NCBI GenBank assembly: GCA_037043015.1
Contig: CM073326.1
Location: forward strand, 16,624,345 to 16,688,344
Direction of reading: 5' to 3'
DNA length: 64,000 bases
Source: Bryum argenteum
Taxonomy: Eukaryota; Streptophyta; Bryopsida; Bryales; Bryaceae
The position numbers were made by a program, and so were the translations under genes. Positions 24,077 through 60,740 of the stretch are shown one piece after another (positions within the stretch are counted from its first letter, which is position 1; each line of letters begins with the position of its first letter). A model generated the notes under the pieces. It searched no databases and was not told the DNA's origin. It worked only from the letters and a program-made list of their open reading frames with translations.

Positions 24077-24116
24077 GTCTCATGAAACACACTAAATCTT
24101 CAATATTTTGATGCAG

Positions 24117-24434
24117 ATGGAGTGGGACGGAATACCAATACGTCGCAGTGCGAGATTGTGTGTGGAGCCCGGGCCAAGCACAGCCTCTTCCACCCCTCCA
24201 TCTAGTGAAGACGACGCTCCTAATCCTCCACGTTATCCTCAACATGAGTTGTCTGATCTCGGTGATGGTGTTCAAACATTTGCTCTTCCAGACACTGAAG
24301 TAGATTTCAATATTGACTACATTACTTCTCAAGAAATTGCTAGATACTACTCAAGCTCTGAAGATCCCATTCAGACAGCGAAAACGATAGGGGTGGAGGT
24401 CTCGAAGATCTACTGTGGCCGCCGGAGGTACTAA
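24117..24434 (+). CDS. Short acidic frame upstream of the transposase
   Basis: Opens MEWDGIPIRRSARLC at 24117, directly after a good acceptor-like TTTTGATGCAG, and runs 105 codons with a Pro/Ser/Glu/Asp-rich composition. It ends one base into the next ATG. It may be the first coding exon or the N-terminus of the transposase, displaced by a frameshift or separated by an unrecognised intron; its acidic disordered character fits the N-terminus of piggyBac transposases. I cannot choose between these. Confidence 0.35.
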   Translation: MEWDGIPIRRSARLCVEPGPSTASSTPPSSEDDAPNPPRYPQHELSDLGDGVQTFALPDTEVDFNIDYITSQEIARYYSSSEDPIQTAKTIGVEVSKIYCGRRRY

Positions 24435-26856
24435 TGCAGGCTCGAAATTACGGAGCGACCTCACGCAAGCGACGCAGCAGTTATCGGAGGAGTTCTCCTG
24501 CAGCCGAACCAGCATCACCGTCGGAGCACGCTGCTGGAGGCGCTCGGACCTCGGGGCACGCTGCCGAGAGCAGTCGCCGGGGCTCTTCGACGAGATCGGA
24601 GCAGGTGAGCGGTACTGGCCCCATGCCAGGCGGAGCTGCGGTCTTCAACGGCAGGCAAGAGGCCAACGGTGGCGCCTTATCGGCGGGGTCTGCTAGGGAG
24701 GTTTTGGGCCCGGATTGGCCTGCCAGCGATGCCCCCGACATGCGTGGGGTTGATGACCAGACGCTGCCAGTAGACGCCGAGATGCTCGCAAGAAATCTGC
24801 AGATTTGTTTTTCAAGCGACTCGCCAACTAGGCAACTCCAGTCAGTTTGGCCAAGGAGTCAACATGATCATCATATGGAGGGTGAGGGCAGAGGGTATAT
24901 TTTGCCACTGCATGGAGGAGGTGTGGGTAACTTGCATAATAACAAGAATCATAACTTCTATAACGAAGGTGACCATACTCACATGAATGGGAATGACGGA
25001 GGAATCTCACCGGTAACAAGGAGAAGAGGCAGACATGGTATTCGGGGTGACTTGAGTGATGACTTGAGTGAGGAAACTCCCTTGGTTGATAGTGATGTAG
25101 AGAGTGATGGTGATGGTCCAAATGTGGGCTCAACCCACAATCAAACGGGACTGAAGTGGGAGTATAGAGATGAGACTTGGGAAAGTCCCCGTATCATGTA
25201 TAATCCTCAACCTATCCCTTTTTGTGGTAATAGGAGAGGCCCTTCAAGAAACTATCGTGTACTTCCCACATTTATGGAGTTGTTTCATTTATTTTGGACT
25301 CCTCAAATCATGTCCAAAATTGTGTTTGAGACAAATAGGTATGCTAATACCCCATCCGGTGAGGGTGGAAGCACTAAGGGTGGACCACAATGGTATGATT
25401 TGACTATATCCGGTCTACAAGCATTTATGGCATTGGCTCTCTATATGGGGTTGAAGGTGCAACCCAACAACAAGACTTATTGGATGAGAGATGACTTGTT
25501 TCAATGTAAGGTGATATCTAGCATATACTCAAGAAATTGGTTTTGGGATTTGAGGAGATGTTTGCACCTTACTAATATGGAGGGGATGCATAGAGGTGAC
25601 CCGGGCTATGATAAGATTGGACAAACACGATGGTTGATAAATAGCATTAGGGAGCGATGCAAAATGGCTTGGTGTCTTGGGAAGCATATTACTATTGACG
25701 AAATGATGATCCGATACAAGGGAACTTATTCCCCTATTCGGCAATATATGCCCAACAAGCCCCAAAAATGGGGCTTGAAAGTATGGTGCTTGACATGTTC
25801 TGCTTCCAAGTTTGTGTACAATTTCAAAATTTATTGTGGCAAGGAGCAAGTTCCCGGTCCCCCTATTTTACCTATTGGGACCGATCCCATAACTTCTAAT
25901 GCAAATAATGGCTTAGGACCGGGTGCCATAGGCCAAAATGGAGGAATTCTACTTAGAGAAGAAGTGGTGGAAGTTTCTAATACAATTGGGGATGCAAGAT
26001 TAGCACACAACGTCGTGATGAGATTGCTTGAAGGTCTTTGGGATGTTGGGCATGTAGTGACCATAGACAATTTTTTCACAAGTGTAGGCCTTTTTACAAC
26101 ACTTTTAGAACGTGGTATGTATGCCACCGGTACTATAAGGGCAAACCGTATTGGTATTCCTACATGTTTGAAAAATGTCAAAGCCTTCAAAAATGTGCCA
26201 CAAGGGACAACAATTTGGAAGATGCATGAGTATGGGAGACTTTCTTGTGTTATGTGGAAAGACAAGAAGCCCGTGCTCCTTCTTTCCACACATGCTATGC
26301 CTATTCAAGCACCATGTGAGAAAGTGGTATGTGTTCCCGCCGGAATGGTGCAATTAGAGAGATGGTCCAAACTTCACCGGTTTTGCATGAATACACAACT
26401 CACATGCGCGGAGTTGATGATGCCGATCAACTCCGTGCATCTTATTCTTGCCAAGTGCGGAGCCACAAATGGTGGCACCGCATCTTCTTTTTCTTATTGG
26501 ATGTCACCGTGTGCAACATGTACATTTACTACTTGGAGTGTGTGACACATGTCAATTCCCACCGACGTGCGGTGACCCCTATGACCCACTTACAATTCAA
26601 GAAGGGGTTGTGTAAAGCCTTGCTAGCGGGGTGGAATTTGAGAAGTTCGGAACCGGAGGACTTTGCGCCATTACCGACCCAACCGGTGATTTGTGTTCCA
26701 AGGTATACCACATTACGGCGGAAATGTGTGGTGTGCAAAGTCCGCGAACCACATTACTTTTGCTCCAAGTGTGGCAATAAGTGGATGTGCCTAAAGCAAG
26801 GTTGTTTTGAGCAATGGCACACCGCCCTTGCTACACGGCGCCAATTCCCTAATTGA
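24434..26856 (+). pseudogene. piggyBac transposase with one frameshift
   Basis: The frame from the ATG at 24434 carries a low-complexity N-terminus, then the DDE_Tnp_1_7-type core. The first catalytic Asp lies in ITIDEMMIRYKG (about residue 422) and the second in VVTIDNFFTS (about residue 545). Near 26337-26341 the frame shifts; the next frame continues with HMRGVDDADQLR (third Asp), a WWHRIFFFLLD helix and a C-terminal cysteine-rich zinc domain (CVVC, CSKCGNKWMC, C, H) ending at 26856. One missing base in a CCC run would explain the shift. The family excises precisely at TTAA without a DNA footprint. Apart from this lesion the core is intact, so inactivation is recent, or the base is a sequencing error. 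Confidence 0.85.
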
Positions 26857-28179
26857 TTATATGTAAGATGCCAATTTCTAATTTTTATTCTCTTTGGCCC
26901 CAATATCTATTTTTATTTCCATTGCAAAGTATTTTTATGTTTGTCGTGATTACATTTATCCACAACCATCTCATTGATTGCAAAATCAAATTTCATGTTT
27001 ATAAATTTTTCACTTCCTTTTTGGGACTTCAGTACAGGGAGTCCAACAGCGTTTCTGAAGCCTTCTTATTTTTTCTCTAACTGTCCCCTTCCCTTGACAG
27101 CTGGAGCGGTGGTGGTGGAATCGAGCTGGCCCTCGGCCTTGTCCAGCTGGGATATTGGGCATGGGGTACGACCTGCATGTCCCCCTCCAGTGGGGAGACT
27201 CCCTTAGACCTGCCATCAGGGAGCTTCGGGGAACCTTGGGGAGCTCCGGTCCCCCTCCCTTTTGTCTAGCAGGCCGTCGTAGGAGGAGGCGATGTGTCGC
27301 CGGCAGCTGCACTCAGTCCCCACCGTAAAGCTTCAAGCTGATTTCTGACACAGCCCCGATTCGCTTTTCAAGAGCCTCCCATCAATCTGTCAGTAGCTAT
27401 GTTGAAGGGAACCCAAAGGGGAGCTTAGAGAACTATTATCTACTACATTCTATAGCTCACACATATAGTTGTTTTTAGCTTGCTTTTATTATAGGAGTAA
27501 TGGCACCAGGCCTCTGCCACCCTTTTGTAATGGGTCCATCGTAGTAAAAGGGGGTTCCAACATTGCATTGCTGCCCCTCTTCCTTTTATACCTATTTTAC
27601 ACGGTTTTACTTCTCAAATTCATAGACATTTGAGATTTTGGAATTTTTGGAAAAAAAAATCGTCTACATTTATCTTTCATACAACCACACAAAACCACCG
27701 TTCACTTTTGTAAGAAGAATTCAGCTCCATGTGGTATTTGAATATGTCCCCAAATTGTACGAGTACATGTCACATAGACCCTGTTCCACAAAAAAATTTA
27801 GATGAAGCTTCTAAAAAGTGATGCAATAGTCAAAATTTTGCACGAAGGTGCCCAACTTAGTTTCCTACATGGAAAAAAATATTAGCAAAATGTTTGGGGT
27901 AATAATTATCAAGTCCCCCTACGCACCATTTACACCATGTCATTCGGTCAAAGCCAAAAAAAACTTTTCAGTCAACTTTGAACGTTATGATCTCACAAAT
28001 GGTAAAGATCCAACGGTTGAAATTTTACATGAAAGTTCCGATTGTAGGTACCTACAAGATCTTACGGTTGGAGTTACAAAAAACTCAAAAAAACTCGACC
28101 ACATGTCAAAGTGGACAAGGTGGTCAAAAATCGCAGTTTTTGGACTTGGAGGTTCCAAAACATGCCGGAGCTTTAGGGG
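26857..28179 (+). other. 3' non-coding part of the piggyBac element
   Basis: Follows the transposase stop. A GC-rich patch at 27100-27350 has no supported frame. The terminal 400 bp (27780-28179) contain the repeat family also seen at 2480-2650 and 20780-20870, and end in the right inverted repeat. Confidence 0.5.
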
Positions 28180-28231
28180 GGATGCTGCTTAGATGTGAGC
28201 CACGAGCAGCGAGCAGCGAGCCACGAGCAGG
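28180..28231 (+). repeat. MULE left terminal inverted repeat
   Basis: 52 bp matching 41124-41175 in inverse orientation with mismatches at positions 3, 4 and 11. It contains an internal tandem GAGC(A/C)GC-type repeat (GAGCCACGAGCAGCGAGCAG), a degenerate version of which continues to about 28266 as GTGAGCAAGGAGCAGG. Confidence 0.9.
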
Positions 28232-28744
28232 AATATGTGAGCAAGGAGCAGGAACATGTGAGCAAGTCACTGTTCATAGTGTAATTTGGAGGAAAATTCA
28301 GTTGATTTAAGTGAAAACTAAACAACTTTTAAGGTATAGACATTAGAAATTCGGATGTAAGAAAGGGGGCCTATAAGCGTGGAATTTTGAAATCCCACGG
28401 CGATAGGATCCATATGTAGAAAAGATGACCATCTCAAAAAAAAAATCACTAGTGACACCATACGGATAAATTAGGAATAAATTCAGAAAACACATATAAG
28501 ACACCAAAGAATATGATATATATCAACCACCGGCAATGACCATAAACCATAGTTTGGAGCGATATACGAAGTTTTGAAGTATTATGGATATACTTGTATC
28601 CTAATACATAAGAGGAAGTACTTCCTACAGTCTGTAAACATGACTTCTATAAGCATAACAACAAATATATTAGTTGACAATGTAATCCTAGTTTAAGGTC
28701 TATGTATAATAACTTGCACAGGGCTAATGAACTTGTTCAACCAT

Positions 28745-31700
28745 TCACTCTTTCTCTACAACTCCAGCAAGCTCTAGAATCTGCATGACCTCGTTGTAGG
28801 AGTATGTAGGCTGGTGAATGAACTTGTCTGTCTCATAGTTCAACTTACATAAGTAACGGAAAACATAATATAGGTGCTTGCACGGCACCCACTTCCTACT
28901 CGCTGCCTTAGAACTCATACCAACAAAGTCTTCGCAGGTACATTGTGGAATAGTGCTCACTGACACAAGGTATGCCTTCTCTTTGTCATTGACAATGGTG
29001 ATGACCACACCACACCCCGGTTGCGGAACCATAGTCACTCCAGTTATGTAATATCCATTCATGTGGCCCGTACTCATCCATCTGTTCTTGTGGTCGGCGC
29101 TAGGGGCATCTGGACTCCGACGACACTTCCTTCCAAACCTCATGCTTGGATGAGCATCCGTGTTGTCAGGAACATGGAATCGAGAACGTAGTATAGGGAT
29201 ATTCACTTGAGTTTGGAACTTCTGCCGAGGTGATAAAGCTTCTTGTTGTTGCAGCTGGAACCCTGCATCTTCAAGCTTCAGAACCTCTTCGCGTGTCAAA
29301 TTCGTACCAAACTTGACAGGCCAAGTAATGGGGACGGGGGGCCAATGTAAAACAAATGGCCTCTTGGTACCCATTACGCAACGATGAATGTCGTCCGGGC
29401 AGAAGAAGAACTCGGCTTCTACATTCCGACCCATTCTAACGTCTTTTTTCATGCCTGCGTAAGTTGGTGCAGGAGTCCCATTTGCCCCTTGTGAAATCTT
29501 GGTTCTACAAGCCTCTCCTGAAATGGATTGAAGCGCTTGACATTGCCTCCCCGAAGACTTCGGAAGACGAGCAATGTGCCATTGCTTGGGATCACAATTG
29601 GACTCCATCACCCTTGTTGTGTGAGAGACGTGGTGTTGAGGGCTTTTCAGAGACTCCTCAATGCGTTGCCTGGTTGACCTAGTGTTTGGCTTGGGAATAG
29701 AATAGTTTACCTTATCCGGGCGATGCGAATCAAACTCAGAACCCGGTGGTAAATTCAGCTTCCTCTTAGTGGAACCAAAAATCTCAGCCCCTTCAAGAAC
29801 AATTGGATGATCAAGGAGATCTCCACCGCCAGGGAATGACTTCATGGCAGCGGCAATGAGCTTGGGATCACCGCTACTTGTTGCTGCCCTTAGCTTCAAA
29901 GCGGCTTTATCGGGGCCCTTCCCTTGCTGTCCACCTTTGAGCCATTCACGATAATTCGTGATCTGCATAAACGCTCGAATCATATCGTCTTGGGTTGCTT
30001 CATATAGGCACTCCATGGTATTGCCAGACTGCATCAGCCACTTGTGATGCACGGACTCTGCTAGATTGCACGAAGGCATGTCTGCCCGTTGCTCCAGTGT
30101 CAAATCCTACAAAAGCAATTGAAGTACGGATGTCAACTTGAGTAGACAATACGCTCTTATTGCCAGGAGAAAAAAAAAAAGGTATATGAGCCTCACCAAT
30201 ATCATTTGGCCACCCCATTGTCTGTATCGATGGTGCCAAAATCCCAACCATTCGGATAAAGAAGACAAGCATTCTTCTCTTGCTGCGCCGGATGTTGCCC
30301 ACCATGCACGAATAGCATGGTATTTCTCGTCAGCCTCCCTTTGGGTCGTTGCATCTCTGTAATTGCGACAAAGTTGCTTGTGCTGGAATTGCATCTCTGG
30401 TTTAATGTACTTCGTCGTATACTTATCAAGGTTTGCAGACCAATGATAAAAGCACGTACGTTCACGATCTTCCATAGGCTCATCCGGATTCCCAGATCCA
30501 TACACCTTTATGACCGCTATCCAATTGGCTTGGGCACTATCCGCCATGAAACCCTTAAAGTTGACATTTGGGACGCCATTTTCTGCCATAACCTTGTTGA
30601 GATTCTCCCAGAAGAGAGAGTCCGGGCAACAAAGATCATCTTGATTGCATATCACAGAAGGCAATTGTCATTACCTTGCAGTATTTGGTGTCGTAAACGT
30701 GGCAGGCCAATGTCGTCCACTCTTTCACTCGTTTAACGTTGTCAAACATAATCCATGCATCTTGTAGCTCACCTCCCACCTGCATACGCTTCACGAGGTC
30801 GACACCACTCCCTTCGAGGTCCACGGACATCTTGAAAATGAATACCTTGTCGTCACATTGTCCTGGGAATCGATTATCATGCACAAACTTGAAGTGGGGA
30901 TTCTTCTTGAGGTCGATAATCCCCTCCATAGGGGCACGCGAGGACTTCACAAGGCGTCTTGAAGCAGAGACGATGTTCCTACAATTAGGAGAGGCAAGAG
31001 GGGCAAAGCGATCCATGACTGATTCGAGACTAGGATGTTTCTCTCCTGGAGTTGGTGTCTTGAACAGAAAATCCGCTAGGAAGTTTTTACTTGCTGCCAT
31101 TTGAATAGCCGAGTTTGTCGCCTTTGGAGTTCGTGACACTTCAGATGCCAGGAACTCATACGTGAGATCTAATGAGTCCCTGCAGACGCCTTCCGCCACT
31201 GGATGACTGTGATGGCCCAGATGAATAAATGCACGCTGCATTGCGGGATTGGCACAAGTAACATGGTACAGTTGGGCATCACAGAGAGCTAAGCAAGAAG
31301 GTGGTGTTAGACAAACCTTACACATGAAGGTAGATTTCAGGGGAGGGGGGCCACCAACATGGAATTGAGAGTGCGTAATACCCGTCCATGCTGTATTGTT
31401 CCGGACACCACCATTTCGGAGAAGGTACTCGCAAGAGCCGTTTGCACATTCTAGATGTCCAGCGCACACGGAGCGTCGAAATACGAGGGAGAAGTCGTTC
31501 CTGATGTTAGAGGTCTTGGTAGTGCACCACGGTTTGCCGTCATAGACCTTGTCCATCCCGTCTAGGCTCTTGCCGTATGTTGTAGGAAATCCAATTGGTA
31601 AAGGCGGAAGCAAGAAAATAACATCTCCGTTGTAAGTGGTAGGGATGTACTTGACTTCTGTGACCCTGATGTTGTCGAAGTCGATGTCAGATAGCGCGGA

Positions 31701-32300
31701 TTGGGAACGGGGGCGAACTGCAGTTGCCTTCAAGGCATCTAACATGGATCTGTGTTTGACGGAGAATGTGGGACTACGGGGTGGTCTACCTACACTAGAT
31801 GATGGAGTCCTTTGGAGTTGCGAGTTGTTGTTGCTACGTACAGCACTTGACGACGGGGTCCGTTTGAAAGGAAACGGACAAGTGCTGGCCAGATCGACTG
31901 TCGGAACTATGTCATCATCAGAGTCACTCAAAAGCGTGATGGGCTCCGTGTCTGGCTCAATCTTCACTCACACAGTAGGGGTGAGGAGGACGGTGGAGGT
32001 GATAGAAGCTGGAGTGAGGCACATTGTAGATCCTTGCAATGCTGAGCTCGAGAAGCCAAATACTTTGTAAGACCCAGCTGACAGCATCCAACCTGCAGAA
32101 TCACCTTCCTTACTCTTCAATTGCAGAACAGTCTCCCCTACATCACCGTTATCAGAGATAAGCTCTTGCTCAACATACATTCTACCCATCTGAAGACCAA
32201 ACTTCGCCTCCAAGATCGATTCGTCCACAAAGACCATTCCACCTTCGCCAATAGGCAAAGTGAAGGGGATACCAACACCGTTTGCACGAATGGAGGCCAT
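28745..32300 (-). pseudogene. MULE transposase with SWIM zinc finger, two lesions
   Basis: Exon 1 runs 32300-30198 and exon 2 30106-28745, with a 90-bp intron (GTGAGG/GTAG). About 1,150 aa. Order: N-terminal region; an acidic SUMO-interaction-like ITLLSDSDDD; a Cys/His cluster (CAGHLECANGSCEYL onward) resembling WRKY-GCM/FLYWCH-type fingers of MULE transposases; the catalytic core with D in HVYDTKYCKVM, D in GFMADSAQANW and C-H in RTCFYHW; and a C-terminal SWIM finger (CTCEDF ... CKHL). The element's transposase should bind the terminal repeats and cut both ends. Lesions are an in-frame TGA at 31970-31968 (GTGAGT there could also be read as a splice donor) and a one-base shift near 30640 between CDMQS and DDLCCPDSLFW. 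The start ATG at 32300 is a choice; an upstream exon is possible. Confidence 0.85.
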
Positions 32301-33006
32301 GATCAAACAACGGGTGATAGCACAGTATGTCTGCCTTAGAAGGAACACTAATCGCAAAGACGCATTCAGTTATTCCATAAACCATATGTAGCAGAACAAT
32401 GTTAATACGAGAACCAGATGAAGTTGTGGTTCATTACTGTCAGAGAGAATGAAGAATTTAATTATCTTTTAATTCATTGTCCTACAGCTGTAGACAGATC
32501 TCGTTATAGTATGGATAAATAGGCATCCGCCGTCCACTAAAGTCACGATAGAATGTACAGCAATGTAGCCACATGGAATAGATTACGTCAGGATACATAT
32601 CGGAGTTGTATTTCTAAAACGCATGTAATTAATTATCGCACGGAAATAACTCGTTCAGCAAAAATAGAGAAGCCGCCGGGAACCGAAGTGGTCTACTTAA
32701 AATAAGTCCAGAGTATAAAGTGTTGATAGCTTATTAAAGCTCTTGAGTAAGGGTCACTTTCTGTGTTCGATAATAGTAGCGGAATCAGATCTAGGATGAT
32801 AATATTGTACTCTGCCGTTTATTGAAGATACGCTTACTAAAAGAGCAAATATAATTCAAAATAAAGTTATGTATTAGTGGGGTTCACTAAATTGTGTTTT
32901 TGAAAGGTTGTAGTAGTCGATACTATGTGTACATGTGAAGTGGTTAAAGAGGCATGGATTAGTGTGGTAAAGATGGTATAGAGAAAAGCAGAGTATTTTT
33001 AAGTGA
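32301..33006. promoter_or_regulatory. Central divergent region of the MULE
   Basis: About 0.7 kb between the transposase and the ParB-methyltransferase gene, AT-rich and without a coding frame. It must hold both promoters if the genes are transcribed outward. I see no convincing TATA box or repeated operator. Confidence 0.4.
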
Positions 33007-33069
33007 GTTAGGGTCCTTTCAAAACGTCTACACATAAAGGAGGGTGAAGCGTCTACTCCCACCAGTTAT

Positions 33070-36000
33070 GTGACACCTAAGCGAAGGAGGAAACCGGGGG
33101 CCTCAGACTGGACGGATAGGAGGGCGAGACAGAGGAGAGTAGCACGTAAAGAAGTTTATGAAGAGTGCCTCCTTTACAACGCACCCGTGAAGAGACAAGG
33201 AGATGGGCTGCCTATTGCGACCAAGTTCTGTAGCATTCGTAAACTCATCTTAGATTCTATAGTTGAGAGTGAAGGAGAGGATACTGTGGATCCCGACATC
33301 GGGCGTATACAGCACGAGTTAGTTTGCAGTGACGAAGGTCGTGAAGAGATGGCGAGAGGTATAGGATTAGAGTGTGATCGAACACCGGAGTCACCGCAGC
33401 CTTCCTTTGGGAAAAAGGATTCTCGTTCAAGGGAGATAAATTCTCAATCCGGTGGCGAATTTCACTCGGAAGAAGTAAGTCCACTATTTTCACCAAAAAT
33501 TGCCCTTAATTAATATGGATATCTGTCTTTTGAATTAGTTTATTTCTTAGTAATACTTGGGATATCGTAATAACGAGTCGTAAGGATTGACAGTATGGGA
33601 GCTCTTAATTGATTCTATGGGTGGAGGTGCATGGCCCTATTCTGGTTCGTGGAATGAGTCCTCTAGTCAATTTCGATAACGAACGAGGTCGTTGCGTGAT
33701 AACTAGTTTATGCAATTGATTCTCCACTTCGACAAAGTAGTGGGGTCTAGATGATAACAGATTTGTGATGCCCCCACGACATTGATGTATTTATTGAGTT
33801 TAATATATGAGTTGATCGGCCTCGGTCTTCCAACTAATTTTTTTCGGGATGACGATAAGTCAAATCTATTAACACTCTTCAAATTCTAATTCATACGAAG
33901 TGCCAGTCATCACTTCCCCTTAAGTACGCCGCTATCCTTTGTAGGCTCCTCTTATCGATTCTACTAATGAATGGACCGGTTAATATTTTGACCACCAATT
34001 TTAATGTAGCTTAGATATAGGGTTATCCACTGTGCCTATCCTCGCAGAACACCAAAGGTGGAGGGTTCTGTGTCGAGGGAGTAGACGGGGAGGAGTTGCG
34101 CAGCCTAGCGAGGAGGGCAAGAGCCGGCATTATGGAGGCGGGGCAAGCTGCTGGAGGCGAGGCGTCGGGAGGCGGAGCGATGCTGGGCCGGCTAGGACCT
34201 GTGGACGGAGATCACGTGGAAGAGGGGGTAGAGAGGGATCGAGAGGAGGATGACGGAAGCAAAGGGGAGGTCCCGGGAGTCGCCGGTCCAGGTGCTCGTG
34301 GTGCAGACGGCGATGGAGACGACGCCGAAGGGGGCGATTCCGAAGAAGATGAAGATGACGACCAGGTGAGCTTATCTTCATTTGGATACTTAGGTCGAGG
34401 GTTTGGGTGGGGTGGGGAGTTCTGCTGTTTGGTGTGCGTGACGTGTGGGATGGAATTCGCAATGTTGCCGGGAATGGTTCAGAGGTCCTGGAGTAGGGTA
34501 TTGGAGGCGGAGGTGCATTCTGCATCGCTAGTTCGGCATCACAAGTTTGTTTCGAAATTTGTTGAAGGAGTCTGGTAACCTTTCGGCACCGAAAGCTTGG
34601 GAGAGAGCCATGCCTTCCCCGGGAACAGTCCTTGCCTTCCCCTAGATCCACTCCGTTGCACACAGAGGTCCAGTCCTTTACTTCAGTGAGGTTCTTCAGC
34701 TTCGGCTGCAGCTCAGCGCCGAGAATGTTTCCAAGAGTTGGGTAATGGGGGCGGAGGTATTGGTTTTCAGAGTTGGGTATTGGTTTCGAGATTCCTCCAG
34801 GGAGGCCGGTAAGCTTTCGGCCCCGAAAGCTATGGCCGTGGCGTTCAAATCTTCTAATCCGGCTGTCCGTTCGCTGCATTTGTAGCCTAGTCCGTGTTCA
34901 TTAGTTCGGCGGCAAGATAGCTTTCGGCACCGAAAGCTGTAAATGGCACACAGCCATCCCGTGGAACCTGTGCTGGATCCGGTACTTTTTTCATCTCGAA
35001 ATCGCCAGAGTATGATCGAGTCAAGTTAATTTGTGATTGAGTTTCGAGATTTTAGTTCGGAGGCAAGATAGCTTTCGGCACCGAAAGCTGTAGTTGGCAC
35101 CCAACCATCCCGTGGAACCTGTGTTGGATCCGGTATTTCTTGCATAATCATAGGTTGCTTTCTCTTGAGATTCAAGATTGTGGACTTGAATGTGCTCAGA
35201 TGGTTTGGAGCCGGCTTGACTTGTGCACTTTTAACTTGTCGAAGTCGCCAGTTTGGAGGGTCTGCCGTCTTTTTAATTTAGTTCCCAAATTTCGTGGAGG
35301 TGGCGAGTAAGCTTTCGGCACCGAAAGCTGTAGTTGGCACCGAGCCTCCTCGAGGAACTTGTGCTGGATTCAGCAATTTTTGAATGATCTCAGGTTGCTT
35401 TCTTAGTTGTCATGCAGCCGGACTTAGAATTGATGTACTTTTGAAGTTGCCGTACCGTTGTAGGCCATTTGAAAGCACTTTAGTACTGTCATCTTGAACA
35501 GCACTTTCTGCTCTCTATGAGATTCTTTTTTTGTTTGATATGATTGACCAGTTGCTTGAATTCGTTGAGTTCATCAGTTTATGAATCGATCATAATGTTG
35601 TTTCATAAGTGGAGTTCACAGGACTTGCAGATCCTACAAGGAAATCAGGTAGTCACCAAATGAATGTGTGGTATGAAAGAACAATTAGGAACTCATCTGA
35701 ACAAATCTCTGTCCCCAGCCCATTCGAAAGGTTCGACTATTTCCATATCAAAATCTTGTATCGAAGTAACATAACATCATTTTTAATGTTCATGGTGCCT
35801 ACAAGATGCTCTTGATCCTGCTGTATTGATTCAATTTAGATGCAAACCGGAAGTCATAATATTGACTTATGTAAGTTGGCTTTTGATATGCACGCAATTT
35901 GTCTTTATGACTTTCCATATTTGATGCATTAAAAGATTATAAGTATAATTATGTATACTTTAATAATTATAGATATAATTTAGTTCTTAGTGCTCGTTGA

Positions 36001-39000
36001 ATGGCTTTTCAGTTCCGAGATTTAGGTGAGTGGAAGGGTAAGCTTTCTGCACCGAAAGCTAGGCTTAAAACCCAGCCTGTCCTCGGAACCATTCCGAGAT
36101 TTCTGATTTGGGAAATGATCTCGCGAAATGCGTAAAGGAGACAATGTGCTTTTGGTACCGAAAGCAATTGCAAGGACCCCCCTTGACTCCAGAACTTGTT
36201 GAATTGAGTTGAGTAGCTGCAGAGTTTAATTTGTAATTGCCATTAGTTTGCATGTTTTATCCACAGTCGTTTTAAATTTGTTTTCTTGCATTTATGATTG
36301 ACGTGAATCTTGTTATCCAGGTTAGTATTCTTATGTGTGATTTATAATCATTGCTTTTGATTTTGTAGTCCTCGGATCAAAACGTGGAGATGGCTGATCC
36401 AGACATTACTCAAGAAGAAACAGAGGTACTTTGATGTAATATTGTTTAACCTGGGGTCGACTACGATGTTTGAGTTGTTCTCATACACTTTTATTTATGA
36501 GATTGTTTCATGATGATTTCTATGTGATTTAATTATGTCGAATTTACTTTCTACAGTGTTGAATTCAAGTATTAAATTGCTTGACTTATAGCAGGAAATT
36601 CAAACACAAGACAAGTTGCCATCATCATCATGCCCTTCAACTTTGTCGAATGCTATTGATAGCGAATTGCAACATCAAACACTGCACAAGGTGGACTCCA
36701 TCAACGTTATCAACAGCGTTCGATTTCAACCCCTGAAGAAGTCTCGGTTGTTGGTCCCCTTGTGTAGGATGATATCAATGGCTAAGGTGAGACCAGTCGG
36801 TGAAATGGGGATACAACATCTAGAGCGGGAGTTCGTGAAAGGATATCGAGATGGGGATCGAGTCATGTACATTTCTATGTAGAACAACGAAGAGTTGTCA
36901 TCGGATGTTACGGAGGAGGTCAAGGCCAATTGGAGCCCATGTTGGGAAAGGGCGAATCAGGCTTTTGAAGACGAACTTCAAGCAGACCCTCATTTGAAGC
37001 AATTCTCTGGCAAGATGTTCTATGTCTGGGAAGGAAACCATCGCCTGGCCGCATGGTTAAGACATATTAACAATCACCATTCCGATGATCCCGAATGGCA
37101 CATCTCCGTGCATTGCATTATTTTAGACCCACGCGGCCAAGTGGGCAATCTTCTTAATGCCATGCACGATATCAACTGGTGAGTGAACTCCTAAATATAT
37201 TCTTTCAACCGTCTTGATATCTTGTTCTTTCCCATTCTCTAATTTTTTAATTTCATGTTTCAGGTCTACTGAGAATGACCACGTTAAGAGTAATCTTCCA
37301 GCGAAGCTTTACCGCATCCGCTCGTTTGGAGTGATGAGGTTGGAAGAATTCAAGGACCTCTTGAGTCCGGAAGAGTACGATGCATGCAAGAAAAACAAAC
37401 ACAGCAAAGACCGATGGTTTGCCATGACAACAAAAGTGTTCATTGCATTCCTATATAGGGTAAGAATATTTTGTGCGAGTTCATTTCAGTACTTTCTTTT
37501 TCTCAATACTTTATAGTTGAGTTCTTCTTATAATTAATGTATTCTTCCTTCAGCGGGAGATTGCAGTGGCTTCGGACGAAGCCGCTAGAGTCTACATGGA
37601 GAAAACCTCAAGGGAGGATCAAACTGCATCCGGCATTTGGGATGCAATGACAAAGGCATCGGATAATATGGTCCAAGCCATTGCGAAGAAAGACTTCACC
37701 AAGTACTTGGCTATTGCGAATCCCAAAAACGGTGACGATTTCCTTGCAGAAGTAAGAGTCTATCTTATTTTACTGCAAATACTTCTTTCTCATTCCATAC
37801 AAGTTTTATTTATGGACGTTAATCTAACTTGTTATTCTTGCAGATCAATCGACATTACAGTGAATTCTCTAAACCAGAGATGTCACTGGAAAAGCTTCAG
37901 AAGATAGTTCCAGCGGTTGTGGATGCCAAATACAAAGCTCGTTGGTTGAGGTGGTAGAACTCTTCTCCGAGTTCAAGGCTTTCTTATAGATTTCTACCTC
38001 CAGAATTCAAGGATGCCGACCTCGACCCTTGGTTGAACAAGGCAGCATTTTGGGCGGGGGTATAGTTTTCCATAACTCCTTCAAACTACTTAAAATATTC
38101 TCAATTCGGCTCAATTCATTCTCGTCACTCATGAATTACATTTGTTCTCCTAGTTGGAGGAGGCCGTTATTCACGAGTTCGAGGACATATGCAAGGCGGA
38201 GAAGCTCGTCATCAACTGGAAGGCATCTCCAGATGTCCTGCGACCAGGCGCCTATGTAGACAGTTGGCGTATTCTACTATGGGATAAGGCATTCCCCACA
38301 TTCTTAGGTCCCAGGACTGAGAAGGTTTTTGATAAGAAGTCAAATTTCAGCAAATTCCCGGGAACTTCAGAGGTCGTCAGGCGGGTTACGTACCGGTATG
38401 CTCATGAACTCAATCTCCCTTGTCATATTATTGATGTCCCTTATTCTACAATCCCATACTGACTAGAACAAATTGCATTTGTAATTGATCAGGTACTTCA
38501 AGAGGGAGCTACTTCCAAAAGGTGCCATCGATGTACAATCGCTCCCGAAGTACTTTGCTGCATGGATTCAGAAAGGTTCAGACCAATGTATCTATACTGC
38601 TCAACAGTTGAAAAGGTACAAACAACCACACTTGGATGCAGGATGTTGGTATCTCGACTGCGTTCGTGGATTTGTCTTTGATTCAGAGGCCGAGGTGATG
38701 ACCTTACATGATGGCGGACTGGAGGTGGAAGAAGATACCATGCAAGTTCGTGAAGAAGACGAAGGGCTCCAGGATCAGTCCTTTGTAGCACCACCTAAGC
38801 CAAAGAGAGGGCGACGTTTGCGTCGAGGGACGGACATCGTATCCTTCGGTTCGGAGTCCCAAGCATCAGAGCTAGGGCAGACGGAGTCATCCGCACAAGG
38901 GTCCGGGGCCGTCTTTGCAACTCAATCTAATGTCGTCGCTAAACTTTCACTTGCTCCTTCGACCGTGCCTTCCGCAGTGAGTGCATTGGACATCACAAAA

Positions 39001-40642
39001 GGTCTCATTGAGCAGAGGAAGGCGAAACAAATCCCCGCTAGCAGCTCTTCAAGTGGAATTCCACATTCGTCCGAAGTTTTCGTCTCCAACAATTCTGTGG
39101 AGACATTGATGTCTTCACACTCGAAAACGTACAAAGTTAGCGGTGGCGATCCAAGATGGATTCAGTTTCAGGACTTCATTCGCAAGGTACAATCCTTTAC
39201 ATGGTAAAGCCTTGTATGCATTATGGTCTACTTAGTACAAGAAAGACTAACTTTGCTTACTACTTCCTTCCAGGTTGGAGAAGGCCGCCAAACACAAGTT
39301 CCGGAACGATGCGAAGAAGAGAAGCACTTGGGGATCGATTTGATCATTGCCGACATCCCTGAGAATCTACCCGTACCAACAATATCCAATCCTTCTTCAA
39401 GCATTCCGCCGTGGAACGCTCGACACACCGGATATGTGGAGACCATCTTCGAATTTGCAAGCGATTTCTTGCAAAATGATGGTGCTCTCCTTCTCTTCCT
39501 CTGCGATGATCGACACCTCATATCAGACATTTTTGATCAGGCTCACACCTACGACTTCGTGTTGCACAAGGACTGGTGGGGCATCAATGACCTGGGCTTG
39601 GCTTCTCCAAAGGACTCGAACTCCACGGTAATTAAAACCATTCTGAATCCAATGATGACATTGTGCACTCCAATGATGAATTTAGTTGTTTTTGTCTCAC
39701 ATGTTTTGGTTGACTGTAGTCTATTCGATTCTGGATTTACGTCTTCATTCGAGGTGGCGACGTGACCTCTAAGTTCACATTCCAGACGAAGAAATCTGAG
39801 GTTATACATGAGGACGTTAATATAACCAAGAGTGATGCCCTGTTCAACCTCACCACTTCGGAGACTCAACTCATGAATGGGAACGTTCCTTGGAGAGGAC
39901 CGAGGGAGAAATCCCCTTTGTTTGTGCAGGCCCTCATTGAGCAGCTAACCAAGCCCGGCGACATAGTCCTCGATTGGAAGGCAGGAACAGGTAATCGATC
40001 ACACAATCGTTCTGTACTTCCATATTTCTCACTTTCTGAATTGAGTCTCACATCTTTTTATGCTTTAAATTTCAGGGGCTTCCATTAAGGCCTGCCAGGA
40101 GATTGGTCGCCATATTCTGGCGTTTGAGGATGACGAACCCATCTACAACGCCCTTTTAGCTCCATATGCCGCCCCTAAACCTCTCATGGCCCCACCTAAA
40201 CATCCAAGACCTTCGCCTGATGGCGAAGCCCGTAGCAAGAAACAAAAACGGAAACGCTGGGATTGTAAGTAAGTCTTACTTTTTATTTCCATGCTTGTAG
40301 TAGCATCATCTTACCTTTGCTTCTACATACATCTCTACTAATTCATTCTAACCACTATCCGATTTATATTGCAGAGTACTTGCAGCAACACCACGACCTC
40401 TGCTAAGTCCCGTGCCCATTCCATCGTGGCGTATGAGCTCCAGTCCCATTCAGCCTTATATTCTTCCAGAGTACGCTGAAGAGTTAGCACAGGCGTTTCA
40501 GTCCGGCACCATTAGATATGATCCTAGTCAAGCTACTACTTGTGATTCGAGAGCCCTTGTGTTTATGGATACCGAGGCTTTAGAAGGAGATTCTGAGTCC
40601 TCGAGATCAGTTAGTGGAAGTAGCGATGGTAGCATATCTTGA
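33070..40642 (+). pseudogene. ParB-like nuclease domain fused to beta-class N4/N6 DNA methyltransferase
   Basis: Thirteen exons join in phase at GT-AG sites: 33070-33474, 34048-34365, 36369-36425, 36595-37178, 37264-37459, 37554-37751, 37844-38059, 38154-38395, 38493-39186, 39274-39627, 39720-39990, 40076-40268 and 40375-40642 (about 1,330 codons). The N-terminus is basic then strongly acidic. Exon 4 holds a ParB/sulfiredoxin-fold region (MGIQHLEREFVKGYRDGD ... YVWEGNHRLAAWLRHI). Exons 10-12 hold the methyltransferase in beta-class order: motif IV IDLIIADIPENLP, a strand NDGALLLFLCDD, then motif X/I SPLFVQALIEQL and GDIVLDWKAGTGA. A Lys/Arg-rich tail resembles a nuclear signal. Motif IV is DIPE rather than DPPY, and motif I reads DWKAGTG rather than DPFAGTG, so activity is doubtful. 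Lesions are a TAG at 36880-36882 and disturbed frames in exon 7 (TAG near 37957). No ATG fits the first exon; its start is uncertain. Confidence 0.75.
34580..36165. repeat. Seven dispersed copies of a CTTTCGG-NN-CCGAAAG palindrome
   Basis: Centres are near 34588, 34822, 34929, 35080, 35320, 36051 and 36157. Four copies (the third to the fifth, plus the second with CC in the centre) have the full 20-bp form AGCTTTCGGCACCGAAAGCT or a near match; the first is shorter, and the sixth and seventh have one or two changes. Copies 3-6 sit in larger diverged repeats that continue with TGTAGTTGGCACC and GTGGAACCTGTG-TGGATCCGG-like blocks. All lie in the second intron of the ParB-methyltransferase gene or its donor-side flank. 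They could be protein-binding sites, hairpins or by-products of tandem duplication. Confidence 0.85.
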
Positions 40643-41123
40643 GTTTGAACAATGTTTCGGACTTCTGTTGTTTTTATTTCATTTTATTTGATTTGATTGG
40701 ACTTGATTGGATTTGATTACATATTGTTTCGAAATTTCATACACACACATCTAATATGTTTGTACTCGACCATCGTGGTTTTATTAGTCTTTACCATTTT
40801 AAAAGTTGTGGGACTTGTTTGCTAGTTATTCTTATGTTTGTACTCTGACATGGTATAAATCTTGCTTTCAGCAGTACCATTCTTGTACAAGAACTTTAAA
40901 ATCGACCATCGGGGTTTCTATATAGTTTTCCCGTTTTACATTCTTACATTTGTCCACGGTCATAGGTGCTATTCCCTTTACTTCTCTCCATTTCCATAAT
41001 TGGTCTTTCAAATTATAACCAGAATCTTCCATTAATAATGTTAAACCTTCCAAAAATCCACGGTCATAGGACCTCTTCGCCAAGACTGTTTTCGTCTTTT
41101 CACCAGAAAGTTAACTCCCTGAG
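40643..41123. other. 3' flank of the methyltransferase gene inside the MULE
   Basis: AT-rich, no gene seen. TTTGATTGGACTTGATTGGATTTGATT-like short repeats occur near 40690-40720, as expected of a 3'UTR. The right terminal inverted repeat starts at 41124. Confidence 0.5.
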
Positions 41124-41175
41124 CCTGCTCGTGGCTCGCTGCTCGCTGCTCGTGGCTCACATCTTAGCAGCTGCC
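41124..41175 (-). repeat. MULE right terminal inverted repeat
   Basis: Inverse of 28180-28231 at 49 of 52 positions. It is followed immediately by the second copy of the 9-bp target duplication CTTTAGGGG and then the TTAA (41185-41188) that belongs to the older piggyBac insertion. Confidence 0.9.
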
Positions 41176-41188
41176 CTTTAGGGGTTAA

Positions 41189-48479: not shown

Positions 48480-48940
48480 CGTCCGACAGTGGCCGACCGC
48501 ACTTCGTCCCAACCGACCGCACCCCGTCCGACCGTTTGACCACCGACCGCACACCCGTCCGACCGCCGTTTGACCACTGACCGCACCACACCGTCCGACC
48601 GTTTTGGCCCGACCGCACCCCGTCCGACTCTTCGACCGGCCCGACCGGTGCCGGGACCGGCGTTCCCTAAACCCGGCCGGTGTGCGGACCGGCGAGGTCG
48701 GGCGCCGACCGTCCCGAGACGAGAGAGGTCGGCCGCCGACCGGGGGACGACGACCGGCGAGGTCGGCCACCGGCCGGGGTGACGACCGGCGAGGTCGGCC
48801 ACCGACCGGGGTGACGACCGGCGAGGTCGGCCGCCGACCGGTTAGCGGACCGGCGAGGTCGGCCGCCGACCGCTGTGGCGACCGCCGAGGTCGGCCGCCG
48901 ACCGCTGTGGCGACCGGCGAGGTCGGCCGGCTACGAAGGC
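48480..48940. repeat. GC-rich CGACCGG tandem array, left
   Basis: From about 48744 to 48930 five to six units of about 33 bp repeat GACCGGCGAGGTCGGCC-CCGACCG with small changes; more degenerate GTCCGACCG units precede them from 48480. Each unit is itself partly palindromic (CGACCGG/CCGGTCG). Open frames here on both strands (Arg/Pro/Gly-rich) are compositional. The array ends about 60 bp before the TATA box of the hAT gene. Arrays of this kind next to transposon ends are often transposase-binding sites; that is inference. Confidence 0.8.
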
Positions 48941-49002
48941 CCGACCACTTGAATTTCAACGTTAAAAATTCAAATTTCAACGGTCAAATTCAGGGTTGAA
49001 GG

Positions 49003-49009: not shown

Positions 49010-49209
49010 GAGAAGAGACACAAGGCCTCATTTCACTTCCGAATTGTGAATGCGACCCAACGTCTCTGAGCTGCATAACTTTATGTTATGTGTCCGTTGC
49101 TTGGTACGTATTGAGTTCGGAAGTGCAGAGTTCGTTTACGAACTCTTGACATTTTTTTCTACATATCTACTACCACGTTTGATCATTTTGAGGTGTCCTA
49201 CCTATCAAA

Positions 49210-52111
49210 ATGGCCAACAAATCATCCTCACCTTGGTTCACTGATGTTCATGAAGTACAAGGCCAACCTACCACGACCCCAACGGTCCAATGCAATCTCT
49301 GTCATAAGGTTATGAGCAAGAGGCTAGAACGGCAGCTCAGTCACCTTGGTTATGAAGGCAAGCGTGGGGTCCGCCTTAATACAGTTACGCTTTGTCCAAA
49401 ATTGAACACCCGAGTAATGGATTTATTTCGAAGATGTGACGGGCGGTTCCCTCCACATAATGGAGAAATGAGCGGTGCACATTCAATACCATCGTCATCA
49501 GAAGTTCCGAATGTTGGCACGCCAAGGTCCACTGGTGGAGACTCTTGCGTGGGATCTTCTCAAGCTACCCCTTCGATTCCATCAACACCTTTAGTTGGAT
49601 CAATCTCCGCCGTTCCTAACTTCGCGGGACAAGTGAGGGTTGGTGGGCATATCAATAGGGCGATGAAACAATCTGTGATTGAAGATGGTTTCTTTGAAGC
49701 GGATAGGCGGGAACTAGACATACTTTGGGCAAGTTTTTTTCTATGAAGCAAACGTACCGCGTTCTTTGTAGCACGGAATCCGATCTTCAAGGAAGCCGTA
49801 ATGAAAACTGCGTCTTTCCGAAAACCATATGTCCCTCCTTCTTACCATGACATTCGGACAAAGTTGTTGGGACAAGTAAAAAGTGATCTAGAAGGAAAAC
49901 TAGATAGTAGACTCAAGGAGAGCCTCCAGAAGTTCGGGGGAACTTTAGCCATGGATGGATGGTCATCTGTGAGTAGTCGCCCTCTTGTGAATGCAATGCT
50001 AGTGACTCCTGCTGGAGAGCTTTTTCTTGGCGCCGTCGATACTACTGGCAAAGAAAAGACAAAGAATGTATATGGCCTCTATCATGGTCAAGTTCATCAA
50101 ACAAGTTGGCCCTGAGAACGTTGTCCAAGTCTGCACGGACAACGCTTCTGTAATGATTAATGCCTCTCGATTAGTCGTTGAGGATTATCCCCATATATTC
50201 ATTCAGGGATGCGCCACGCATGCGATGGATTTGTTGTTGGAAGATTGGGGAAAGGCGTCATGGATGAAAGAAACTTTGGAGAAGGCCAAGGGCTTGGTCA
50301 AGTTCATTAAAAATTGTCAAATGCCTTTAGCCGTGTTTCGTAAACACGAGACAAGGTTTAGCCTATTGATGCCTGGGAAAACAAGATTTGCGTGCAATTT
50401 TATAATGATAGATCGCTTATTGCAGGTTCGCGATTCTTTGGAGCAAAATGTTGTAGATCCCCAGTGGTTGTCATATGCCTCGAAGAAGTCTCTATCAACT
50501 AGAGATAAATTACTAGAGTCCCGCAACGTAAGAAAAGTGGTTTTGGATGACGGTTTCTGGAAGCGTTGTACAAACTTCCGAGATATGGTGGCCCTAGTAG
50601 TGTATGCTCTTCGGGAATTCGATGGCAAGGAGCCTTGTACGGGCAAGGCTTTGCATATCGTTCGTCAGCTCGAGAAGCATGTACTGACGCTATCTACAGA
50701 ACCATTTTCTCTCCCGACGTATTTAGCGGACATTGCGAAGGAGAACTTTTACGCAAGGAAAAAGATGATGACAACAGATCTGCTTTGTGCTGGTGCACTT
50801 TTGAATCCTTATTTACTACATGACAAAGAGTTAGCAGATGATACTGAGGTCTGGCATGGGTGCAGGCGTGTTCTAAAAACTCTATGTGCTCCGGGCACTT
50901 ATCATGATGTGGCGAATGAATATATGGCATTTCGAATGAGGAGTGCACCATTTCATGAGATGTTGGATCCTACTGAGTCGAAATGTTCTCCCTTTGTTTG
51001 GTGGGAAATTGAAGGGTTTGTTGGAAAACTCCTTGCTCCGATTGCAAAGCGAATCCTAGCTCAAACGGTGTCATCGTCGGCGTGCGAACGCAATTGGAGC
51101 AGTTACTCTTTCGTTCACGATAGGAAGCGGAATCGGTTGCTACCGGAAAGGGCTAATGACTTGGTCTTTGTATACACCAACTCAAAGTTACTTGCAAACG
51201 CAAAGTTAACGGATGAGAAGAGGTGGTACTCGGAGAACTTGGATGTAGAGGATCGTGACGTACGTGACTCCGAGGATGAAGAAACCCCCCATAACTCAAT
51301 TGGTGAAGGCTTTTCGGATCACGTTTTAGAGGACCTAGAAGATGACCTCAATAGCATCCCCGCTATGAGCTTGCAAGATGCTTTGAACGTCCTGAACACC
51401 ACGTATGACTTTGTTGACGATGAAGCTGAGGCGGATGATCCAGATGAATTGTTGCCCCTAGCTCATTTACAACGGTTTTAAAAGGATACCGACAAAGTCA
51501 CTTGTGATAATACCCCTCGTACCGGACTAACTCCAAATACGGACGAGAATGTTCTGAATGTGAAAATCGTGGGGGATGATACTCATGGCCGTACAGTAAC
51601 GTTTGATCCAATAACGAGAAATATGACGTCCGCCACTACGGACGAACCTGCGTTGCCTGCTGTTGCCTTTCGGTCTCTATTTCAAAAATGTGATTTAGAG
51701 GTCCCTACAGTGATGGAGAAATCTTCCAAACGTTTGGTGTCACTTTCAAATCAAGTGCGACCCCGAACAGTACGTACCAATTCCGGCGGAATCTCTAGTG
51801 ACTCGGATGTACCGCTTCTTCAATTGGGATACAAGAACCTTCCAGGAGGTTCAGGGCTACGGAAGAAGGAGCCTCCAAGAGTTATGACGAAACGTAAAGC
51901 TCCAATGCTTCCGTTTCTTCATGATAAACCGAAGAATCCCCTTGATGCCATTGAGAATGCCGGAAAATTCAAGATCATTCATCCGGGAAGTCACAAACGA
52001 AGAATCAAACAAGAAGTTAGTAGTGATTTCGAAGATGACCCTACGGGATCTAGCGGAGCTGAAGTCAAAGGAGACAGCGATTATGCAATTCCCACCGATG
52101 TGGATGAATAG
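49210..52111 (+). pseudogene. hAT-family transposase, degenerate
   Basis: The ATG at 49210 (MANKSSSPWF) opens a BED-like finger (CNLCHKVMSKRLERQLSHLG, later LCPKLN). The DUF659-type region follows from about 49800 (SYHDIRTKLL ... GGTLAMDGWSSVSSRPLVN), then the RNase H-like core (VCTDNASVM, GCATHAMDLLLEDWG) and the C-terminal hAT dimerisation region (SSACERNWSSYSFVH ... LVFVYTN). Lesions are a TGA at 49744-49746 with frame disturbance just after a T run, a frameshift near 50066, and a TAA at 51479-51481 after which the same frame stays open to 52111 with a charged tail (KRKAPMLPFLHDKPKN). The tail is either a normal extension cut by the stop or read-out. The transposase is presumably inactive. 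Confidence 0.85.
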
Positions 52112-55060: not shown

Positions 55061-55344
55061 TGTTACGACTTCCACGGTCCTAACAGTTACAGTAGTTACG
55101 TAGCCCATAATGCAGTTATAACAATTAGACTATATAATACCAGCATAAGGATGTTATTCCTTATCTGGTATTTTGTGTTCATGCTACGATGTTCTTCTTC
55201 ATGATATATGAGAATACTTAATCACAGTCATATCACAGTCTCCATTTGCATGCGTACTTTCTTGGAATGTGTTCATTGAGTTCAAATTGTCCAGAGGAGG
55301 TTGCAGTCGAAACATGAGCCCTTGTCAAATGTCGATCCCTGACA
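55061..55344 (+). repeat. 5' LTR
   Basis: 284 bp, TG...CA ends, nearly identical to 60745-61030. The following bases (TAATACCAGATCACAC) are not the usual initiator-Met primer site, so the primer tRNA is unclear. Confidence 0.93.
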
Positions 55345-55537
55345 TAATACCAGATCACACAATCGGTTCAAGTTTCGTTGCTGGCATGACGGCCCTAGAG
55401 TGAGGGTGTGCAGTGTTGACTTATAATTACAATTTTGTAACTTCAGATATGGAAGGAGGAAAATTCTGTTCCGGAGTAACGAACCGTGAAATAATTTTCT
55501 TGGCATTGACTTATGCTGTGAAACATTGTTGTTGACG

Positions 55538-60503: not shown

Positions 60504-60740
60504 CTAAGAAATCCACCACCTATTATTACTCCCGAAGGAGACTTAGAATATGAGGTAGATCATATCTTAGACTCGCTGTTTGTTTGGTCATTTGGAAAAA
60601 ACTTGATTACCTTGTTTCATGGAAAGAATATGGTCCCGAGGAAAATTCTGGGGAACCGATTCAAAACCGGAGAATGCTCCCGATATCGTTGCAACTTTTC
60701 ACAAATCCCATCCTCATGCGCCACGAGACGTAAAGAGGGG
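60504..60740 (+). pseudogene. Degenerate integrase C-terminal chromodomain
   Basis: After the stop at 60503 two frames together show a chromodomain pattern: LEYEVDHILDS in one frame, then SWKEYGPEEN and EPIQNR in another. Chromodomains at this place define chromoviruses and guide integration to marked chromatin. At least one stop and one frameshift separate it from the integrase. Confidence 0.7.

What the first reader, a model, noticed from the sequence alone, without database searches (positions are those of the whole stretch)
33070..40642. ParB-like nuclease domain fused to a DNA methyltransferase inside a plant DNA transposon
Seen: thirteen exons join in phase and encode a GNHR-type ParB/sulfiredoxin-fold segment followed by a beta-class N4/N6 methyltransferase (motif IV, then GDIVLDWKAGTGAS). 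Established: ParB-methylase fusions are common in bacteriophages and bacterial mobile DNA. Inference: a bacterial or phage-derived modification gene was captured, acquired introns and is now transposon cargo. It could mark transposon DNA with 6mA or 4mC, or act as a DNA-binding reader. The maintained phase across twelve introns argues for past selection. I know of no described plant MULE with this cargo.
Basis: partly seen in the sequence, partly recalled or inferred. Interest (0 to 1): 0.95.

Follow-up and report, generated by a model that had tools for sequence, protein, structure and literature searches.

The report
Transposon ParB-methyltransferase with matching palindrome arrays
A large family of plant jumping genes carries, next to its transposase, a gene for a bacterial-looking ParB plus DNA-methyltransferase-like protein, and several of its subfamilies also carry their own repeated palindrome just upstream of that gene, which looks like a way to recognise their own DNA.

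The parts
28171..28179 (.). 9-bp target-site duplication CTTTAGGGG, left
   Evidence: identical to 41176-41184
28180..28231 (+). left terminal inverted repeat, 49 of 52 bases identical to the right one
28180..41175 (.). whole transposon, 12,996 bp, Mutator-like
   Evidence: nine of ten fetched copies share this unit, some with gaps
28745..32369 (-). Mutator-like transposase (DDE-like region; CxC...CxH SWIM-like finger at the C end); this copy has a frameshift between ORFs 30636-31967 and 30107-30667
   Evidence: Pfam SWIM below cut-off, no MULE hit
32625..32947 (.). ~323-bp unit between the divergent genes; two or three copies in some relatives, one here
33007..33474 (+). exon A (5' end unresolved; possible acceptor before 33040), fast evolving
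   Evidence: dN/dS 0.50-1.01
34048..34365 (+). exon B, acidic low-complexity, fast evolving
   Evidence: dN/dS 0.40-1.02
34578..36166 (.). array of seven 20-bp sites AGCTTTCGG-CA-CCGAAAGCT (three identical, three with 1 and one with 4 mismatches; starts 34578, 34812, 34919, 35070, 35310, 36041, 36147) in intron B-C
36369..36425 (+). exon C
36595..37178 (+). exon D: ParB/Srx-fold domain with EGNHR; nonsense TAG at 36880-36882
37264..37459 (+). exon E (middle region)
37554..37751 (+). exon F (middle region)
37844..38059 (+). exon G (middle region); nonsense TAG at 37955-37957
38154..38395 (+). exon H (middle region)
38493..39186 (+). exon I (linker with charged low-complexity part)
39274..39627 (+). 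exon J: methyltransferase-like domain, altered motif IV ADIPENL
39720..39990 (+). exon K: PWRGxREK segment and motif I LDWKAGTG (joined with L)
40076..40268 (+). exon L: motifs after I (GRHILAFEDD)
40375..40642 (+). exon M, C-terminal tail and stop
41124..41175 (-). right terminal inverted repeat
41176..41184 (.). 9-bp target-site duplication, right

Best explanation
The gene is the accessory (second) gene of a very abundant Mutator-like transposon family. Its product joins a ParB-type domain, a middle region of unknown fold and a methyltransferase-like domain with a conserved but non-canonical catalytic motif. I propose that the protein binds palindromes that the element carries in arrays upstream of the ParB exon (in the window, inside the gene's large intron), and through the ParB part loads or spreads on the element's own DNA, while the methyltransferase-like part binds SAM or DNA as a reader or scaffold, with little or no methylation. 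The purpose would be self-directed control of the element, most likely protection from silencing, as VANC does for VANDAL transposons. SHOWN: element, gene model, ParB fold (confident model), methyltransferase relationship, selection, palindromes and their position. INFERRED: that this protein binds these palindromes, clamp behaviour, loss of catalysis, anti-silencing. The window copy itself looks inactive (two nonsense codons, transposase frameshift).
For: Divergent transposase and ParB-methyltransferase gene in one unit: 9 of 10 copies; of 150 listed ParB hits 47 have a listed transposase within 20 kb, 43 of them divergent and upstream; 150 random points give a mean of 3.2 in any orientation. 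dN/dS window vs c5_4.73M: ParB exon 0.12, E-H 0.11, I 0.25, JKL 0.21. ParB N-domain fold; amino-methyltransferase relationship. Palindromes: window type at 14 places in 259 Mb, all 14 upstream of a ParB exon, backwards control 0; subfamily 2 CCCACTGTC-N6-GACAGTGGG 120 sites, control 0; subfamily 3 GCCTTTCGT-NN-ACGAAAGGC 20 sites, control 0; shared core CTTTCGN4CGAAAG 233 vs 17; 82 upstream: 0 downstream where a listed ParB exon lies within 8 kb, out of 134 sites tested. Motif identity between copies 762/820 vs 1865/2530 in flanks. No recurrent palindrome by the strict test in 51 kb of window flank, and in 0 of 200 simulations.
Against: No binding, expression or methylation data. Motif arrays and ParB exon are physically linked, so joint inheritance alone would give the association; the 82:0 count is not 82 independent events, and 52 of the 134 sites had no listed ParB exon within 8 kb. 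By the strict test (arm 8 or more, three or more copies) only the window, c9_3.42M and the five subfamily-2 copies show a recurrent palindrome; the other six subfamily-1 copies, c5_6.65M and c3_10.5M do not, and need mismatches or shorter arms. c3_10.5M has a minisatellite instead of a clear long palindrome. The middle region that would have to recognise DNA was not folded. Exons A and B evolve nearly freely. The motif could be bound by the transposase or a host factor, or act as an RNA hairpin.
Confidence: 0.55

Rival explanations
1. Active self-methylating enzyme: the ParB part or middle region targets the element and the methyltransferase domain writes 6mA or 4mC on it, protecting or marking it.
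For: Pfam N6_N4_Mtase above cut-off; the 50 fold rows listed are amino-methyltransferases incl. CcrM, M.MboIIA, MTA1 and bdelloid N4CMT; purifying selection on exons J-L; same idea proposed for the Ectocarpus protein (PMC12477816).
Against: Motif IV is DxPE in 83 and DxPS/DxPD in 5 of the 88 sequences where a pattern could read it, and no [DNS]PP[YFW] occurs in any of 104 (these 104 were found with a profile of this family, so enzymes with a normal motif could be missed); motif I is DWKAGTG, DWSxSTG or DVNAGVG rather than DPFxGxG; the MTase model has pLDDT only 56.
Confidence: 0.2
2. Palindromes are bound by the transposase or a host factor, or act as transcribed hairpins; the ParB-methyltransferase has a separate role (for example in transposition).
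For: Palindromes lie between the two divergent genes' conserved coding parts and inside an intron in the window, so they could be promoter, enhancer or RNA elements.
Against: They sit next to the ParB exon rather than at the ends; mosaic copies pair subfamily-2 ParB exons with subfamily-2 palindromes although their exons I-M are of subfamily 1, though linkage explains that too.
Confidence: 0.2
3. Passive cargo: a captured gene carried along without a function for the element.
For: Many copies, including the window's, are broken.
Against: dN/dS 0.11-0.25 between subfamilies, exon layout kept in divergent subfamilies, transposase and ParB gene kept together in 9 of 10 fetched copies and near each other for 43 of 150 listed ParB hits.
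Confidence: 0.05

Closest known systems
ParB-methyltransferase accessory protein of Sola1-1_Ec32 (Ectocarpus) and algal relatives (PMC12477816, passages read)
   Same: One ~1.1-kaa protein with ParB-like and N4/N6 methyltransferase domains, on the strand opposite the transposase, in a large DNA transposon
   Different: There a Sola1 element in a brown alga (green and red algal cases are cited there; those sources were not read); here a Mutator-like element in a moss-type genome with 945-1,174 first-look ParB candidates, an altered motif IV, and palindrome arrays, which that passage does not mention. Sequence homology between the two was not tested
VANDAL transposons with VANC anti-silencing proteins (PMC5735166, PMC10398659, passages read)
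   Same: Accessory gene of a Mutator-superfamily element; family-specific short motifs repeated in non-coding regions, including introns; motif type differs between related families
   Different: No ParB or methyltransferase part is described for VANC in the passages read; the VANC21 motif is nine bases, arrayed in one orientation, here the sites are long palindromes; no function shown here
Phage and bacterial ParB-N6_N4-methyltransferase fusions, and the Bacillus cereus ParB-methylase (PMC12704722 sections 5, 10 and passages; PMC5512222 passages)
   Same: Same two folds in one protein, often on mobile DNA
   Different: Here ParB exon and methyltransferase exons are about 500 codons apart, the gene has 12 introns, motif IV is changed, no match to phage records at E<=1
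ParB, Noc, KorB CTP-clamp proteins with palindromic sites
   Same: Closest structural matches; palindromic target sites (parS, NBS, OB: recalled)
   Different: Eukaryotic transposon gene; CTP binding and a DNA-binding middle domain not shown
Methyltransferases in retrotransposons: Dam-like in DIRS, DNMTs in dinoflagellate and charophyte elements (PMC5890265, passages read)
   Same: DNA methyltransferase as transposon gene
   Different: Different element class and enzyme families; no ParB part mentioned in the passages read

Membership tests
ParB/Srx (ParB-CTPase) fold | alpha+beta ParB N-domain fold | tested here: met
ParB/Srx (ParB-CTPase) fold | conserved arginine in the phosphate-binding box (GxRR-like) | tested here: met
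   (E/D)GNHR; G148, N149, H150, R151 at least 90% invariant in 121 rows. Equivalence to the P-motif arginine is by motif, not by residue-level superposition
ParB/Srx (ParB-CTPase) fold | NTP binding, clamp sliding | not testable with these tools
   needs protein
beta-class N4/N6 amino-methyltransferase (PF01555) | domain match and order motif IV before motif I | tested here: met
   35.8 bits vs 26.7 cut-off; 3 of 6 family members match at E<=1; fold rows
beta-class N4/N6 amino-methyltransferase (PF01555) | catalytic motif IV [DNS]PP[YFW] | tested here: not met
   0 of 104 proteins; 88 show DxP(E/S/D), 16 without a readable motif were not examined one by one. So not filed as an active methyltransferase
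beta-class N4/N6 amino-methyltransferase (PF01555) | SAM-binding motif I FxGxG | tested here: inconclusive
   DWKAGTGAS in the window, DWSxSTG or DVNAGVG elsewhere
Mutator superfamily (MULE) | 8-11-bp target duplication and terminal inverted repeats | tested here: met
   9 bp in window, 10 bp in 3 other copies read by eye; 52-bp repeats
Mutator superfamily (MULE) | MULE transposase domain PF10551 | tested here: inconclusive
   no hit for window pieces up to E 1 or for pieces of two other copies up to E 5; own-genome search with PF10551 unanswered
Mutator superfamily (MULE) | SWIM zinc finger | tested here: inconclusive
   CxC...CxH visible; PF04434 10.4 bits vs cut-off 19.6
VANC anti-silencing system | family-specific motif arrays in non-coding DNA of the element | tested here: met
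VANC anti-silencing system | VANC protein homology | not tested
   no VANC sequence was compared
VANC anti-silencing system | binding and loss of DNA methylation | not testable with these tools
   needs experiment
Transposon ParB-methyltransferase accessory proteins | both domains in one protein, opposite strand to the transposase, inside the element | tested here: met
   definition from PMC12477816

The most novel reading that the evidence does not exclude
A eukaryotic ParB-parS-like system: a transposon-encoded ParB clamp fused to a catalytically retired methyltransferase loads at subfamily-specific palindromes in the element's own DNA and spreads over it, so that each subfamily recognises and shields (or regulates) only its own copies; protein and palindrome co-evolve, giving several parallel self-recognition specificities in one genome.
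Probability: 0.38. Interest if true: 0.94.

Novelty: new variant of a known kind. Interest (0 to 1): 0.82.

Why it matters
ParB-methyltransferase transposon proteins have been noted in algae as possible self-modifiers, but the passage I read names no target sites and reports no activity. Here one genome holds at least 205 ParB-exon loci (capped lists) in several subfamilies with different candidate sites, so specificity, co-evolution and anti-silencing become testable with simple binding assays and long-read methylation data. The conserved DxPE motif argues that the methyltransferase fold is used without ordinary catalysis, which would redirect work from '6mA writing' to 'reading or binding'. 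It would also be a second, independent solution to the VANC problem and an unexpected eukaryotic use of the ParB fold; a 2025 survey names sulfiredoxin as its most common eukaryotic form (PMC12704722).

Tried and rejected
Full-length protein with X at the stops found no relative, probably because relatives in that database are mostly single exons; exon profiles then found 175 and 104. PDB sequence searches with both profiles gave nothing. The idea that 36787-36882 is an intron ending at the TAG was rejected: relatives read through with Y. The idea of paired frameshifts in exon G was rejected: relatives have W at the second TAG in the same frame. Phage tblastn negative. VIA-align rows are a second look at Foldseek's own list; absence of a family there excludes nothing; Foldseek searches proper were not accepted.

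Limits of counts: own-genome lists are capped (about 150 scored of 945-1,858 candidates). In one search, 119 of the listed methyltransferase places were typed in (most second-exon rows were left out). In one search the transposase rows on C16 and C18 were dropped. In one search the ParB list was the list without its C18 row, plus the C1 rows and one C7 row added after seeing a nearby palindrome (without it 13 instead of 14 of 20 subfamily-3 sites). Only the first 50 of 120 subfamily-2 sites and the first 50 of 233 core sites (all on C1) were listed and tested; 0, 15, 6 and 31 sites of sets 1, 2, 3 and core had no listed ParB exon within 8 kb; 12 of the 26 core clusters lie within 12 kb of any listed family hit, against 5.6% of random C1 points. 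In one search six of the seven window sites gave alignments (41 in all); they were anchored on the motif, which favours it, and copies are related. Close pairs of copies give dN/dS up to about 1 on few changes.

Literature: searches. Two sources cited for green and red algal cases (Iyer 2011, Petroll 2025) are not held and were not read. parS, NBS and OB sites, MULE motif details and classical motif names are recalled.
Full report
OBSERVATION. The window lies in a 259-Mb eukaryotic genome held as 25 contigs. The gene of the finding splices with GT-AG introns in constant phase. Exons D-M give 1,072 codons including the stop, with two in-frame TAGs, at 36880-36882 and 37955-37957. In relatives these are Y (YISMYNNEE) and W (RWLRWWNSS), so the window copy is disabled by two nonsense changes; its transposase also has a frameshift (compare the open 807-aa frame of another copy). 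A copy of another subfamily, c5_4.73M, has no stop over 1,073 codons with the same ten exons and AG/GT borders, although its own stop is not at the aligned end; this supports the gene model. Exons A and B align in frame in relatives but evolve fast, dN/dS 0.50-1.01 and 0.40-1.02.

ELEMENT. Ten loci around ParB-exon hits were compared with the window: nine share the stretch of about 28.18-41.18 kb, in segments of 72-95% identity and some with gaps, that includes both the minus-strand transposase and the plus-strand gene. The window's ends carry inverted repeats (49 of 52 bases) and a 9-bp duplication CTTTAGGGG; three further copies with both ends in view have 10-bp duplications, read by eye. 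This and the SWIM-like CxC...CxH tail fit Mutator, but Pfam gave no MULE domain hit and SWIM only below cut-off, so I write Mutator-like. A ~323-bp unit between the divergent genes is present one to three times.

ABUNDANCE. Own-genome searches gave 945 (ParB exon), 1,858 (methyltransferase) and 982 (transposase exon) first-look candidates; 150 per search were scored. Of the 150 listed ParB hits, 47 have a listed transposase hit within 20 kb, 43 of them divergent with the transposase upstream; 150 random points give 3.2 in any orientation. For 39 of 150 a listed methyltransferase hit lies within 20 kb, mostly about 2.4 kb downstream.

SELECTION. Window against c5_4.73M (Nei-Gojobori): ParB exon dN 0.108, dS 0.869, ratio 0.12 (193 codons); E-H 0.11 (282); I 0.25 (230); JKL 0.21 (271). 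Exon borders look the same in subfamilies with about 50% ParB identity, while some relatives lack the J/K intron. Copies are mosaic: c4_24.2M, c4_6.07M and c10_13.6M have subfamily-2-like D-F and subfamily-1-like later exons.

PALINDROMES. The intron between exons B and C holds seven copies of AGCTTTCGG-CA-CCGAAAGCT, three exact, three with one and one with four mismatches. Seven other subfamily-1 copies have four to six at up to four mismatches; none occur elsewhere in the window. The five subfamily-2 copies lack it and instead have three to nine CCACTGTC-N6-GACAGTGG palindromes each; c5_6.65M has AGAGCCTTTCGT-TG-ACGAAAGGCTCT; c3_10.5M has a minisatellite with only a short palindromic core. 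By a strict test (arm 8 or more, three or more copies) recurrent palindromes are absent from 51 kb of window flank and seen in 0 of 200 simulations, but the strict test also misses six subfamily-1 copies, c5_6.65M and c3_10.5M. Genome-wide exact counts against the backwards pattern: 14 vs 0, 120 vs 0, 20 vs 0; shared core CTTTCGN4CGAAAG 233 vs 17. All 14 window-type sites, 35 of 50 listed subfamily-2 sites, 14 of 20 subfamily-3 sites and 19 of 50 listed core sites lie within 8 kb upstream of a listed ParB exon; none of the 134 lies within 8 kb downstream; the other 52 have no listed ParB exon that near; random C1 points fall 318 upstream and 306 downstream of 20,000. Some of the rest lie near a listed transposase or methyltransferase hit. 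Identity inside the palindromes between copies is 762/820 against 1,865/2,530 in the adjoining intron (anchored on the motif, so biased upward).

MECHANISM. The closest working model is VANDAL/VANC: an accessory protein of a Mutator-superfamily element binds short family-specific motifs repeated in its non-coding DNA, including introns, and removes silencing (PMC5735166, PMC10398659, passages). [quoted passage not shown] Hence the proposal: bind own palindromes, load or spread by the ParB part, act as reader or scaffold with the methyltransferase-like part. Binding and effect are inferred, not shown.

PRIOR ART AND NOVELTY. [quoted passage not shown] In a survey of Mutator elements across eukaryotes (PMC6446971) and in a review of gene capture by plant transposons (PMC13317346) the words ParB and methyltransferase do not occur. 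The 2025 ParB-fold survey (PMC12704722, sections 5 and 10 and passages) describes phage fusions to PF01555 and sulfiredoxin as the most common eukaryotic form; the words transpos-, plant and moss do not occur in it. So this is a new variant of a known kind; the parts of which my searches showed no trace are the Mutator-like, moss-type setting, the family-wide DxPE motif, and the subfamily-specific palindrome arrays.

Noticed in passing
window 32625-32947: A ~323-bp unit between the divergent transposase and accessory gene is tandemly repeated two or three times in several relatives.
   Followed up: partly
loci L029-L032 (c4_6.07M, c10_13.6M) and L025-L026 (c4_24.2M): Mosaic elements: 5' part of the accessory gene from one subfamily, 3' part from another, suggesting recombination among copies.
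   Followed up: partly
L035-L036 joined (c3_10.5M) 6442-9811: Thirteen copies of a minisatellite around CGGCGGCACCGC in the place where other subfamilies have palindromes; its CGGCACCG core resembles the subfamily-1 palindrome centre.
   Followed up: partly
genome contig C1, single core sites such as 10112636 and 15198551: Several lone CTTTCGGTGACGAAAG sites far from any listed family hit; perhaps a different repeat.
   Followed up: no
window 5494-6930 and 11321-12757: Two inverted copies of an ADP/ATP-carrier-like gene (name from recall), 96.6% identical over 1,439 bp.
   Followed up: no
window 22895-26856 (+): PiggyBac-like transposase reading frames (name from recall).
   Followed up: no
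window 49192-52111 (+): hAT-like transposase reading frames (name from recall).
   Followed up: no
window 55145-61030: Gypsy-like retroelement (name from recall) with two identical 200-bp direct repeats 5.7 kb apart.
   Followed up: no
window 48720-48966: GC-rich 32-bp tandem repeat just upstream of the hAT-like frames.
   Followed up: no
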